Shown: piece by piece, positions 1,781-18,697 of the stretch
Layout of the letters: the number at the start of each line of letters is the position of its first letter
Position numbering within the stretch: position 1 is the stretch's first letter
Origin: a virus
Reading direction: 5' to 3' (one strand)
DNA length: 29,319 nucleotides
IMG/VR virus record: IMGVR_UViG_3300042505_000620
Coordinates: 1-29,319 of that record
The notes under the pieces: model-generated
What the model saw: only the letters and a program-made list of their open reading frames with translations
Databases searched by the model: none
Told to the model about the DNA's origin: nothing
Position numbers and translations under genes: made by a program

Positions 1781-2518
1781 ATGAGTAAGAAAATTGTGGA
1801 AGAAATTGTTAAACCAAAACCAAAGTTCTCGGTGACCGAGCGCTTTGAGTTCATTAGTCAGTTTGTTAACCTTGTAGGTTCTAGTAAACTAAACTCATTC
1901 ATCCTTACAGGCTCTGGTGGTCTAGGTAAGACTCATGCTGTTATTGAAGGTCTTAAAAAGAAAGGCCTTCGTGAGGAAACTGTAATGGATGCAGGTGATT
2001 ACATCTGTATTCGTGGTTTCTCTACGGCTAAGGCCTTGTATCGTACCTTGTGGGAAAATAACGGCAAGGTAATTATATTTGATGATGCCGATTCGGTTCA
2101 CCGTGACCCTATTGGTGCCAATATTCTGAAGGCTGCATTAGGTTCAGAGGATAAACGTATCATTTCATGGGGTGCTGAGTTCCCAGAGGCTGAATCATTA
2201 CCTAATCGTTTTGAGTTCATTGGTCGTGTGGTGTTTATATCAAACCTATCACAATCACAATTCCCACAGGCCTTGTTATCTCGTAGTATGCGGGTTGACC
2301 TGACATTGAATACTGTGGAGAAACTAGAGCGTATCCGTCAGGTATTCGGTGACATCAAGGGTGAGGTAGAGGAAAAGGCTGAAGTCATGGAGTTCATTGA
2401 CAAGTATGCTGAGGTGGCATCCGACTTAAACATCCGTAGTGCTTTATCGGTTCTCAAATTAAAAAAAGATATAGGACAAGGATGGGAAAGAATTGCTTTA
2501 TATAATTTTACTGCATAG
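1781..2518 (+). CDS. AAA+ family ATPase with a substituted C-terminal end
   Basis: This is a P-loop ATPase of 245 residues. Walker A GSGGLGKT is at residues 44-51 and Walker B VIIFDD at about 97-102. A sensor-1-like stretch VVFISN lies near 150-155, with candidate arginine-finger residues R168 and R171 in LLSRSMRV. The substrate is unknown. The last 26 codons (from 2438) are matched by a second, diverged 81-nt copy at 3196-3276, after a homing endonuclease gene. The gene therefore appears to have received a foreign 3' end when the endonuclease element inserted, and it remains full length. The stop is shared in a 21-bp convergent overlap with the endonuclease's 3' end. It is driven by the promoter at 1722. 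Confidence 0.85.
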   Translation: MSKKIVEEIVKPKPKFSVTERFEFISQFVNLVGSSKLNSFILTGSGGLGKTHAVIEGLKKKGLREETVMDAGDYICIRGFSTAKALYRTLWENNGKVIIFDDADSVHRDPIGANILKAALGSEDKRIISWGAEFPEAESLPNRFEFIGRVVFISNLSQSQFPQALLSRSMRVDLTLNTVEKLERIRQVFGDIKGEVEEKAEVMEFIDKYAEVASDLNIRSALSVLKLKKDIGQGWERIALYNFTA

Positions 2519-3160
2519 GTGTATAGACAATCGGTTAATTCCAACTGTCTTTTTACATTTGATACACGAACAATAAGCCATAGGTTTCTTTTTACCAACA
2601 TTAGATAATCTAATTTTTTCTTTAGTTTCACTGGAATGATTATATTGTCCGACCATTAATTTTCTAGCCTCTGACATTTTTTGTTTTGACTCTTTAGAAT
2701 ATATACCTGTTTTACCTTTATTCCATGGAGTTATGCCTTTAAGTGCTTTACTAATTTGCGGACATTTTTTACCTTTGTTCCAAGTTGGTTTTCCACTTCT
2801 AGCCAATTTGTGTTTCATACTAGTTTGTTCGCCAAATTTTAAACCATAATTGTTAAATGATTTGTTGGCCATGGCTTGGTTGATGTATAAATCAGATTGA
2901 ACTACATTAAGTTGTTTTTGTAGTTTTTCTTCTTTATTAAAAGCCTCGAGTCTATTGGTATGATATGAGATTGCCTTTGTTTTGAATAAGTGTGGATTGT
3001 TAGTAAGTTCTTCATTCCATATTGATTTGTATTTTTGTGATGAAACTGAACCATGATATCCATTGTTTATTTTATTGGTTGTAGTTGACCCAATATAGAA
3101 TGGAGGTAATTTGTTACCAAAATAAGTGGTTAGGTATACACAATAATTCATGGTTGTCAT
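2498..3160 (-). CDS. GIY-YIG homing endonuclease with NUMOD3-like repeats
   Basis: The 220-residue protein has a GIY-YIG-type N-terminus: Y6-C-V-Y9 and the F-Y-I-G-S motif at 21-25. A spacer helix is followed by two WNKGK motifs (residues 127-131 and 146-150) and a third basic repeat near 177-191; these are NUMOD3-type DNA-binding repeats. The C-terminus has C197, C199, C202, H214 and C216, a possible zinc knuckle. Such freestanding enzymes cut a cognate gene and spread by repair copying. It converges on the ATPase gene with a 21-bp overlap. An exact TATAAATA late promoter lies upstream on its strand. Translation may begin at 3160 or at the ATG three codons later (3151). Confidence 0.88.
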   Translation of the reverse strand: MTTMNYCVYLTTYFGNKLPPFYIGSTTTNKINNGYHGSVSSQKYKSIWNEELTNNPHLFKTKAISYHTNRLEAFNKEEKLQKQLNVVQSDLYINQAMANKSFNNYGLKFGEQTSMKHKLARSGKPTWNKGKKCPQISKALKGITPWNKGKTGIYSKESKQKMSEARKLMVGQYNHSSETKEKIRLSNVGKKKPMAYCSCIKCKKTVGINRLSIHLCSKII

Positions 3161-3183
3161 CTTGGCAAAGTTATTATATTATA

Positions 3184-3191
3184 TATTTATA
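3184..3191 (-). promoter_or_regulatory. T4-type late promoter of the endonuclease gene
   Basis: The minus strand reads TATAAATA here, an exact match to the T4 late -10 octamer, 23 bp before the endonuclease start. T4's intron-encoded endonuclease I-TevI is also under a late promoter, so the placement fits the family. Confidence 0.65.
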
Positions 3192-3195
3192 ACAA

Positions 3196-3276
3196 ACTGC
3201 CTTGAATGTATTAAAACTTAAACGTGATGTTGGTGATAACTGGCAACGTCTAGCATTATATAACTTTACCAGTTAA
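3196..3276 (+). pseudogene. displaced original 3' end of the AAA+ ATPase gene
   Basis: This 81-nt stretch reads T-A-L-N-V-L-K-L-K-R-D-V-G and ends W-Q-R-L-A-L-Y-N-F-T-S then TAA. It aligns without gaps to the last 26 residues of the ATPase ending at 2518. It has no start codon or ribosome site, and the frame is closed by a TAA just upstream (3190-3192). It is best read as the ancestral end of the ATPase gene, cut off by the inserted endonuclease element. The codons are different but the protein is conserved. Confidence 0.8.
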
Positions 3277-16692: not shown

Positions 16693-17358
16693 ATGTTCAA
16701 TTATTGCCCACCCAAAGTTCTTGAGGAACTATCCGCTGAAACGACCCAATACGGTAGAAAGTATCTGCTACCCGATGGGTCTAAAGTGCCATCTATCACC
16801 ACAGTCTTATCTTATTTCAAAAAAGATATCATACAAGAATGGCGTAATCGTGTAGGTGAAGTTGAAGCTAATCGTATCAGTAAGCAGGCCTCAAACCGAG
16901 GGACGAACGTCCACACTCTTTGTGAAAAATACTTGAACAACGAGACCAATTATGCTCGTGGTGCGTTCCCAGACGCTTTGGAGATGTTTAAGAGTATTCG
17001 TCCCAAGTTAGATGAAAATGTAACAGATATTTATTACCAAGAACAAGCACTGTGGTCTACACATTTAGGTGTAGCTGGTCGTTGTGATTTGATTGGGCAT
17101 TGGGATAAGGTTTTAAGTGTTGTTGATTTTAAAACCAGTAGAAAACCTAAAGTTAAAGAATATATTACTGACTATTTTATGCAAGGCACAGCATATGCTT
17201 TGATGCATGAAGAACTAACAGGCATTCCAATTCATCAAATTGTTATTTTAATTGCTGTTGAAAATGCTGAACCTCAAGTATTTGTAGAATATACAGAAAA
17301 TTGGATAGAACCATTGGTCAATTGTGTTATGGATTATAAATTAAACGTAAGAACATAA
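16693..17358 (+). CDS. PD-(D/E)XK exonuclease (RecB/Cas4-like), T4-like phage type
   Basis: The 221-residue nuclease has G-R-C-D-L-I with D132, V-V-D-F-K-T-S with D145 and K147, an upstream E118 in Y-Q-E-Q-A-L-W, and the Q-x-x-x-Y motif (Q164, Y168), all in RecB-nuclease order. The N-terminus F-N-Y-C-P-P-K-V-L and P-S-I-T-T-V-L-S is typical of the single-domain exonuclease found in many aquatic T4-like phages, likely acting in DNA recombination or host DNA breakdown. Its last 18 bases overlap the 3' end of a convergent homing endonuclease gene, the same arrangement as at the AAA+ gene near 2500. The C-terminal residues (L-N-V-R-T) may have been altered by that insertion. Confidence 0.82.
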   Translation: MFNYCPPKVLEELSAETTQYGRKYLLPDGSKVPSITTVLSYFKKDIIQEWRNRVGEVEANRISKQASNRGTNVHTLCEKYLNNETNYARGAFPDALEMFKSIRPKLDENVTDIYYQEQALWSTHLGVAGRCDLIGHWDKVLSVVDFKTSRKPKVKEYITDYFMQGTAYALMHEELTGIPIHQIVILIAVENAEPQVFVEYTENWIEPLVNCVMDYKLNVRT

Positions 17359-17883
17359 CCATCCTTTATGAGATTTATATAATCCTTGAGCAACACATGT
17401 CATAGATCCTTGTCGTAATGAATAATTTTTACAGAATTGATTCAAATTTCTAATATTAAATATTTCTCCATTTGGAGAAGTAACAATATATGATTTGCTT
17501 TTGTTTGTTTTGTGTTGTTCCGACATTGGTATACCTTTTTTACTTATAGATATACTTAACCGTCTTTTTTCAGTACAAGGAATTTTAAAACCGGACGTTC
17601 CTTCACCGCCGTCTGTTCTATTCCATAATAAACCGGTATTATTATCTTTACGGCCATACCATTTGATATAATTTCGCTCAAGAGCAAAAGCACCAACTTC
17701 AGTTAAATTTTGTTCAAGTATGACAATCAATGATTTATTTTTTGGAATATTAACCGTATGTTTTTTTGATAAATGTCGGTTGCCTTGGCCTTTGCCTATA
17801 TAATATGGCGAACCGTCAGATTCCCGTAAATAAGCATATACATAATATTTTAATTCTGGAGTATAAATATTCATTACTGACAT
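17341..17883 (-). CDS. GIY-YIG homing endonuclease with C-terminal NUMOD1-like helix-turn-helix
   Basis: Y-V-Y-A-Y at 14-18 and Y-Y-I-G-K-G at 27-32 mark the GIY-YIG nuclease, followed by R36 and the conserved E-x-N-Y-I-K-W region. The middle has basic NUMOD-like sequence (K-R-R-L-S-I-S-I-S-K-K-G). The C-terminus (I-F-N-I-R-N-L-N-Q-F-C-K, then S-M-T-C-V-A-Q-G and S-H-K-G-W-L-C) is an IENR1/NUMOD1-type DNA-binding motif. It converges on and overlaps the exonuclease gene by 18 bp. AGGA at about 17886-17889 on its strand and a late promoter at 17941-17934 precede it. Confidence 0.87.
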   Translation of the reverse strand: MSVMNIYTPELKYYVYAYLRESDGSPYYIGKGQGNRHLSKKHTVNIPKNKSLIVILEQNLTEVGAFALERNYIKWYGRKDNNTGLLWNRTDGGEGTSGFKIPCTEKRRLSISISKKGIPMSEQHKTNKSKSYIVTSPNGEIFNIRNLNQFCKNYSLRQGSMTCVAQGLYKSHKGWLCSYV

Positions 17884-17933
17884 TCCTATATAATGTTAGA
17901 GTGTATGCGGTCTGAACACCGGCGATACACACC

Positions 17934-17941
17934 TATTTATA
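17934..17941 (-). promoter_or_regulatory. T4-type late promoter of the second endonuclease gene
   Basis: The minus strand reads TATAAATA followed by GG, an exact late octamer, about 50 bp before the endonuclease start. The leader contains a CGGT/ACCG hairpin at about 17909-17922. Confidence 0.6.
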
Positions 17942-17956
17942 TAAAAGGACTCATAA

Positions 17957-18697
17957 ATGAAGAAGTTAGTATTACTGCTGTTGTTACCAATTACAACACT
18001 TGCGAATCCGTTAGATGACAAGTGTCCACAATTTGCGCCTTATGGTGCACCAATTGGCAAAACAACCACAGAATATTTGTGCCGGACCAATTATGCAATC
18101 CAACACAACAACGAAACTAAGACCGCTTACTTTGTTTTAGAGCATGTAACAGTAGAGTCAATGACAGGTCCAGCTAAACGCAAAGATGACTTCAGACCTG
18201 ATGGCCAAGTACCTAAACAATTTCAAGCTACGCTAGCAGACTACGCAACAGAAGGTAAAACTTACGACCGTGGGCATATGTCACCCGCAGGTGATAATAC
18301 TCAGAATGAAAAGATTATGTCTGAATCATTCTTATTGTCTAATATGGTTCCACAAATCGCCAATAACAACCGCGGTATTTGGAAACAATTAGAAACTAAG
18401 GTAAGAACCTATGTTGCTAGTACCAATGACCTTTATGTAGCATCTGGCCCAATCTATGATGTCGGTTATAAAACCATTGGTCCTAACAAAGTTGGTGTAC
18501 CAACCAGATTATACAAAATAGTAATTGACACAAAGAATAACAAGGCATCAGCTTATATTTTTCCAAACACTGCATTACCTGTAGCGGATATGGAGAAATT
18601 TAAAGTAACCATTGTTGATGTTGAGAAATCCACAGGTATCAATTTTAACCCTAAACTACCAGCAAATTCGGGAGTTGAAACCAAAAAGGATTGGTAA
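17957..18697 (+). CDS. secreted DNA/RNA non-specific endonuclease (NucA/NucM type)
   Basis: Residues 1-17 form a signal peptide (M-K-K, then L-V-L-L-L-L-L-P-I-T-T-L-A), so the product should go to the periplasm or beyond. The catalytic D-R-G-H motif is at 104-107 (H107 general base). The metal/active-site helix N129-M-V-P-Q with N136-138, W142 and E146 follows in the canonical spacing. Two cysteines (C23, C42) could form a disulfide. Length (246) is typical. In a phage it could destroy incoming competitor DNA in the periplasm or help degrade released nucleic acid; neither is shown. AAAGGA precedes the start and the tmRNA promoter follows directly. Confidence 0.85.
   Translation: MKKLVLLLLLPITTLANPLDDKCPQFAPYGAPIGKTTTEYLCRTNYAIQHNNETKTAYFVLEHVTVESMTGPAKRKDDFRPDGQVPKQFQATLADYATEGKTYDRGHMSPAGDNTQNEKIMSESFLLSNMVPQIANNNRGIWKQLETKVRTYVASTNDLYVASGPIYDVGYKTIGPNKVGVPTRLYKIVIDTKNNKASAYIFPNTALPVADMEKFKVTIVDVEKSTGINFNPKLPANSGVETKKDW

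What the first reader, a model, noticed from the sequence alone, without database searches (positions are those of the whole stretch)
2438..3276. Homing endonuclease element that brings a replacement 3' end for the gene it enters
Seen: the AAA+ ATPase ending at 2518 and a stray 81-nt frame at 3196-3276 encode the same C-terminus (17 of 26 residues identical by my count, both ending in A-L-Y-N-F-T-x-stop, both exactly 81 nt). They agree at only about 47 of 81 bases. Between them lies a GIY-YIG endonuclease gene on the opposite strand whose 3' end overlaps the new ATPase end by 21 bp. Known: freestanding homing endonucleases spread by cutting an allele and copying themselves with flanking sequence. 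Inference: the element inserted inside the ATPase gene but carried a working 3' end from a diverged phage, so the target stayed intact and the old end was left as a remnant. This would be a target-gene-preserving strategy without intron or intein.
Basis: partly seen in the sequence, partly recalled or inferred. Interest (0 to 1): 0.9.

Follow-up and report, generated by a model that had tools for sequence, protein, structure and literature searches.

The report
Phage endonuclease bringing replacement gene end
In an uncultured T4-like phage, a selfish DNA-cutting gene sits inside another phage gene and carries a diverged spare copy of that gene's last 26 codons, so the invaded gene still reads through to an intact end; this trick is known from fungal mitochondria, but I found no earlier report of it in a virus.

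Summary
The NrdC.10-like ATPase gene and the 3196-3276 frame encode the same C-terminus (17/26 residues, 47/81 nt). In about 36,600 frames from roughly 100 loci the stray copy scores E 8e-10 and has no rival.

Two relatives without the endonuclease (L007, L008) carry an uninterrupted 245-codon gene; joining window 1781-2437 to 3196-3276 restores exactly 245 codons. The 758-bp insert lies between invariant Arg219 and codon 220. Its ATPase end (2438-2518) is foreign in base and codon composition and resembles the endonuclease; the 3196 copy resembles resident genes.

The window holds a second, weaker case: a GIY-YIG-like gene (17341-17883) entered the end of an exonuclease gene, replaced its last codons, and left the native end beyond it.

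No donor was found, homing is untested, and the strategy has a close precedent in fungal mitochondria (PMC3630166). Sequence identity alone does not decide which end is native (sign test p 0.17-0.42; tree unresolved); composition, frame geometry and the empty alleles do.

The parts
1781..2437 (+). Resident body (219 codons) of the NrdC.10-like AAA+ ATPase gene (phrog_1250)
   Evidence: 78-79% nt identity to the empty alleles L007 and L008; resident-like GC (0.426) and codon use
2438..2518 (+). Imported replacement 3' end of the ATPase gene (26 codons plus stop), left edge of the insert
   Evidence: GC 0.296 and codon use below all 393 windows of resident genes; divergence from L007/L008 above all 194 body windows
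2498..3160 (-). GIY-YIG-like homing endonuclease gene (220 aa) with NUMOD3 motifs and a Cys/His motif at its C-terminus; its last 7 codons including the stop overlap the imported ATPase end antisense
   Evidence: phrog_10820 E 9e-25, NUMOD3 E 1e-8; YIG, Glu77 and Asn94 invariant in the family alignment
3184..3191 (-). TATAAATA, match to the T4 late promoter, upstream of the endonuclease start
   Evidence: Exact match on the endonuclease's strand; 4 in the window, 3.8 expected by chance, so the position and not the number is suggestive
3196..3276 (+). Displaced native 3' end of the ATPase gene, right flank of the insert
   Evidence: Joined to 1781-2437 it restores an open 738-base gene, the length of L007 and L008; resident-like codon use; 21-22 of 27 positions identical to L007/L008 ends
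16693..17358 (+). Second case: PD-(D/E)XK exonuclease gene with a replaced end (..DYKLNVRT*)
   Evidence: Relatives without the endonuclease end ..DYKRTHK* or ..YKRNNK*
17341..17883 (-). Second case: GIY-YIG-like endonuclease gene overlapping the exonuclease end by 18 bp
   Evidence: Found by a profile of endonuclease relatives, E 5e-34, a profile that included this protein; no Pfam match
17940..17960 (+). Second case: native exonuclease end (YKRTHK*) left beyond the endonuclease, overlapping the start of the next gene
   Evidence: 19 of 21 bases identical to the native gene end in L113

Best explanation
A free-standing GIY-YIG-type homing endonuclease gene entered the 3' part of the phage's NrdC.10-like ATPase gene, between codons 219 and 220, next to the family's invariant Arg219. 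It came with the 3' end of the donor's ATPase gene, which is physically tied to it because the endonuclease's last seven codons (stop included) overlap that end on the opposite strand. The resident body now reads in frame into the imported end, so a full 245-residue ATPase is kept without intron or intein. The displaced native end lies unused on the far side. Most likely route: the endonuclease cut the empty allele at the conserved NIR-S/T codons; the left side of the break was repaired by homology to the donor's ATPase body, copying the imported end plus the endonuclease gene; the right side rejoined at the cut. The diverged end should then resist re-cutting. Shown: structure, empty alleles, in-frame reconstruction, foreign composition. 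Inferred: cutting, the donor, the repair route, and function of the hybrid protein.
For: Duplicated gene end far above chance. Two empty alleles of 738 bases without endonuclease or second copy. The window body plus the 3196 copy is exactly 738 bases and open; both junctions fall at the same homologous codon, so nothing was lost. Codon use of the imported end lies below all 393 resident windows (-10.4, mean +4.0) while the old end is typical (+4.3), and this holds for the first 20 codons that do not overlap the endonuclease. Body tree joins the window with L007/L008 (97/96). The same genome has a second insertion of the same geometry.
Against: No donor with the new end was found. Direct comparison of the two ends with the empty alleles is not significant and trees of the ends are unresolved. 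About 5% of relatives without a neighbouring endonuclease also have an AT-rich end. No case with a repeated gene end was found among 20 other endonuclease-like frames. Cutting activity is untested, and the endonuclease structure prediction failed.
Confidence: 0.7

Rival explanations
1. One-off illegitimate insertion. A donor segment with an ATPase end and the adjacent endonuclease gene was captured once by phage recombination unrelated to the endonuclease's own cutting; the element does not home at this site.
For: Only one occurrence of this insert was found, with no relative at the same site. T4-type phages recombine freely (own knowledge). The right junction has no visible homology beyond a few bases.
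Against: Insertion exactly at the most conserved codon without loss of target sequence is what a cut at a recognition site gives. A second endonuclease in the genome shows the same geometry.
Confidence: 0.18
2. Tandem duplication of the ATPase gene or its end in the resident lineage, with later insertion of an endonuclege gene between the copies and decay of the second copy.
For: Two homologous ends in tandem; tandem paralogs occur in related phages.
Against: L007 and L008 have one copy. The remnant starts at the very codon where the foreign composition begins, with no trace of earlier codons. The unused copy is the resident-like one and the used copy is the odd one.
Confidence: 0.05
3. Assembly chimera of two related phages in the metagenome.
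For: Uncultured IMG/VR fragment; no second contig covers the junctions.
Against: Two precise junctions 758 bp apart, an in-frame hybrid on the left and the native continuation on the right, are hard to get from misassembly. Elsewhere the contig is matched at 98% by an independent contig, L109.
Confidence: 0.04

Closest known systems
Mobile ORFs of fungal mitochondria that carry a foreign C-terminus (Allomyces macrogynus atp6; Glomus atp6, atp9, cox2, nad3; PMC3630166)
   Same: Endonuclease gene inside the 3' part of a gene, an imported diverged C-terminus in frame with the resident body, and the native C-terminus left downstream; native end closer to empty relatives than the imported one
   Different: Mitochondrial, mostly LAGLIDADG (GIY-YIG in atp9); in several the endonuclease is in phase and on the sense strand. 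Here the host is a phage, and the endonuclease is antisense and overlaps the imported end by 21 bp
Free-standing GIY-YIG homing endonucleases of T4-type phages (seg genes; PMC2988022)
   Same: Gene type, T4-like host, small overlaps with neighbouring genes, late-promoter-like sequence upstream
   Different: Seg genes are described between genes, with cut sites often far away; gene-inserting cases (mobE in Aeh1 nrdA, mobA in gene 60) split the target into two polypeptides instead of replacing its end
Engineered home-and-rescue gene drives (HomeR; PMC7968924)
   Same: Nuclease element inserted at the 3' coding part of a target gene while the drive restores that gene's function
   Different: Man-made CRISPR system; an analogy of logic only, not a relative

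Membership tests
GIY-YIG homing endonuclease | GIY-YIG catalytic domain with conserved YIG, Glu and Asn | tested here: inconclusive
   YIG, Glu77 and Asn94 invariant among 9 relatives; Pfam GIY-YIG weak in 3 relatives and absent for this protein; AlphaFold model unusable, pLDDT 45
GIY-YIG homing endonuclease | NUMOD-type DNA-binding motifs | tested here: met
   NUMOD3 E 1e-8, above the curated cut-off
Homing element | Empty alleles exist and the element interrupts the site | tested here: met
   L007 and L008
Homing element | Sequence-specific cutting of the empty allele and super-Mendelian transfer | not testable with these tools
   Needs enzyme assays and phage crosses
Mobile ORF with replacement C-terminus (fungal mitochondrial type) | In-frame foreign C-terminus plus displaced native C-terminus flanking the endonuclease | tested here: met
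Mobile ORF with replacement C-terminus (fungal mitochondrial type) | Hybrid gene expressed | not testable with these tools
   No transcript data
Group I intron or intein | Insert is removed by splicing to join the flanking coding parts | tested here: not met
   The ATPase frame runs through to its own stop at 2518 inside the insert, and the endonuclege gene is on the opposite strand; no separate intron-model search was run

The most novel reading that the evidence does not exclude
Phages use natural home-and-rescue elements: endonuclease genes whose cut site is inside a conserved gene and which carry a diverged, re-cut-resistant 3' end of that gene, fixed to them by antisense overlap. This would be a general third way, beside introns and inteins, to invade conserved coding sequence, with two independent cases in this one genome.
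Probability: 0.3. Interest if true: 0.75.

Novelty: new variant of a known kind. Interest (0 to 1): 0.6.

Why it matters
Free-standing homing endonucleases lack splicing, so in phages they are mostly known from sites between genes, or as insertions that split a gene. An element that brings its own replacement gene end can sit inside conserved coding sequence, which makes its target site durable, makes hybrid genes, and moves gene ends between phages. It would extend to phages a strategy described in fungal mitochondria, parallels engineered home-and-rescue drives, and can be tested with a simple cutting assay and phage cross.

Tried and rejected
Donor search: patterns for W-E/Q-R-x-ALYNF and for KLKKDIGxxW in IMG/VR gave only the two empty alleles and one unrelated protein with a vWA-like look (L099). 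Another IMG/VR scan gave only the same two empty alleles and a GTDB genome scan gave none. The endonuclease is absent from 41 phage records, most of which carry this ATPase family, apart from three partial matches. Tree of the ends: unresolved; in the first run row L021 was shifted by one residue, and the corrected run is also unresolved. Operator-like copy of the target upstream of the endonuclease: none above chance. Structure prediction: mean pLDDT 45, not used. Possible similar case in Rhizobium phage RHph_I1_18 nrdD (L100), 24-bp antisense overlap: an 8-residue match at the boundary does not continue; rejected. Generic scan of 1,503 ORF ends in 190 loci: eleven rows score above the window pair; by inspection they look like tandem paralogs or repeats and were not followed further. 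Tandem duplication was considered and disfavoured.

Full report
What is there. The window is a 29,319-base IMG/VR virus record with T4-like gene content. The ATPase gene 1781-2518 belongs to phrog_1250 and matches genes annotated nrdC.10 in T4-like phages. Its last 26 codons and the frame 3196-3276 encode the same C-terminus. Between them, on the minus strand, is an endonuclease gene (2498-3160) with NUMOD3 motifs and the YIG, Glu and Asn residues of the GIY-YIG type.

Not chance. A profile of the C-termini of this family was run over 36,579 frames of about 100 loci. The stray copy scored 39 bits (E 8e-10); the next frame outside the ATPase genes scored 9.6. When the two flanks of each of 21 endonuclease-like frames were compared, this pair scored 104 and all others 44 or less.

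Empty alleles. Two IMG/VR contigs carry the ATPase without the endonuclease: L007 (81% protein identity) and L008 (78%). A tree of the body puts the window with them (97/96). Both genes are 738 bases long. In the window, 1781-2437 joined to 3196-3276 is also 738 bases and open. Identity of the translated gene to the empty alleles falls at 2438-2440, and the remnant starts at the homologous base. The insert (2438-3195, 758 bp) therefore sits between codon 219 (Arg, invariant in the eight-member family alignment) and codon 220, with at most a few bases of microhomology.

Which end is foreign. Direct identity favours 3196-3276 as native (56 and 54 of 81 bases to L007 and L008, versus 47 and 50 for 2438-2518), but sign tests on so few sites are not significant and trees of the ends are unresolved. 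Three other measures are clear. The new end is more diverged from L007 and L008 than any of 194 same-sized windows of the body, while the old end is high but within range (10 and 2 of 194 as high). Its codon use is below all 393 windows of resident genes (-10.4, mean +4.0), including its first 20 codons, which do not overlap the endonuclease; the old end is typical (+4.3). Its GC is 0.296, like the endonuclease (0.303) and unlike the body (0.426). Caveat: about 5% of relatives with no endonuclease nearby also show an AT-rich end.

A second case in the same genome. A GIY-YIG-like gene at 17341-17883 (minus) overlaps by 18 bp the end of an exonuclease gene (16693-17358). In L113 (the same contig as L007), L111 and L112 that gene ends DYKRTHK or a close variant and overlaps the next gene's start, with no endonuclease. 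In the window the gene ends DYKLNVRT, and TATAAAAGGACTCATAAATGA, 19 of 21 bases identical to the native end in L113, lies at 17940-17960 beyond the endonuclease. L110, 93% identical in the exonuclease, has a different GIY-YIG body at the same place with the same leader and yet another gene end, DYKKNF. Here the replacement end is short and not homologous, and the native end may be kept because it holds what looks like the next gene's ribosome-binding site (AAAGGA). It is a weaker case of the same geometry.

A possible third. In L009 a different GIY-YIG-like gene follows the ATPase directly, and that ATPase has the sharpest fall in third-position GC at its end among 86 relatives (z -3.7). There is no remnant. 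Suggestive only, and noticed after the fact.

How it probably works. Shown: a hybrid, full-length gene; an intact-looking endonuclease gene; a displaced native end; empty alleles. Inferred: the endonuclease cut the empty allele at the conserved codons; the left side was repaired by homology with the donor's ATPase, bringing the donor's gene end and the endonuclease gene as one linked piece; the right side was rejoined at the cut. An alternative route within the same explanation is that the donor already had the native-type end on the right, so the cassette moved like an intron between two flanks; the data do not separate these. A TATAAATA late-promoter match lies upstream of each of the two endonuclease genes on the matching strand, two of only four in the window.

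Compared with what is known. Fungal mitochondrial mobile ORFs do the same thing: foreign C-terminus, endonuclease, displaced native C-terminus (PMC3630166); partial C-terminal duplications beside endonuclease ORFs also occur in PMC6279837. The review of T4-type endonucleases describes intergenic placement and gene splitting (PMC2988022). I found no phage case with a replacement end, in searches limited to titles, abstracts and a few read papers of an open-access library. Engineered home-and-rescue drives follow the same logic (PMC7968924). Verdict: real, well supported in structure, unproven in activity; a new variant of a known kind.

Noticed in passing
window 17341-17960; L109, L110, L111-L113: A second GIY-YIG-like gene sits antisense inside the 3' end of an exonuclease gene; the native end survives beyond it. 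L109 shares it (98% identical); L110 has a different endonuclease body at the same place with the same leader and first codons.
   Followed up: partly
L009 1930-2821: A different GIY-YIG-like gene directly follows the ATPase gene on the same strand, and that ATPase end shows the strongest third-position GC drop of 86 relatives, with no remnant.
   Followed up: partly
window 3184-3191 and 17934-17941 (-): TATAAATA late-promoter matches upstream of both endonuclease genes on their own strand; the second leader can fold into a GC-rich hairpin, not beyond chance (z -1.3).
   Followed up: partly
L191, L192 (contigs of L114, L115): Truncated pieces of a relative of the first endonuclease (56% over residues 3-56, with a stop) in phages related by their exonuclease gene.
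   Followed up: no
L100 3001-3753: In Rhizobium phage RHph_I1_18 a relative of the first endonuclease is convergent with nrdD and overlaps its 3' end by 24 bp; no second copy of the nrdD end was found.
   Followed up: partly
L105 1549-4270: Agrobacterium phage OLIVR5 has two homing endonuclease genes alternating with two neck-protein genes, each overlapping its neighbours slightly.
   Followed up: no
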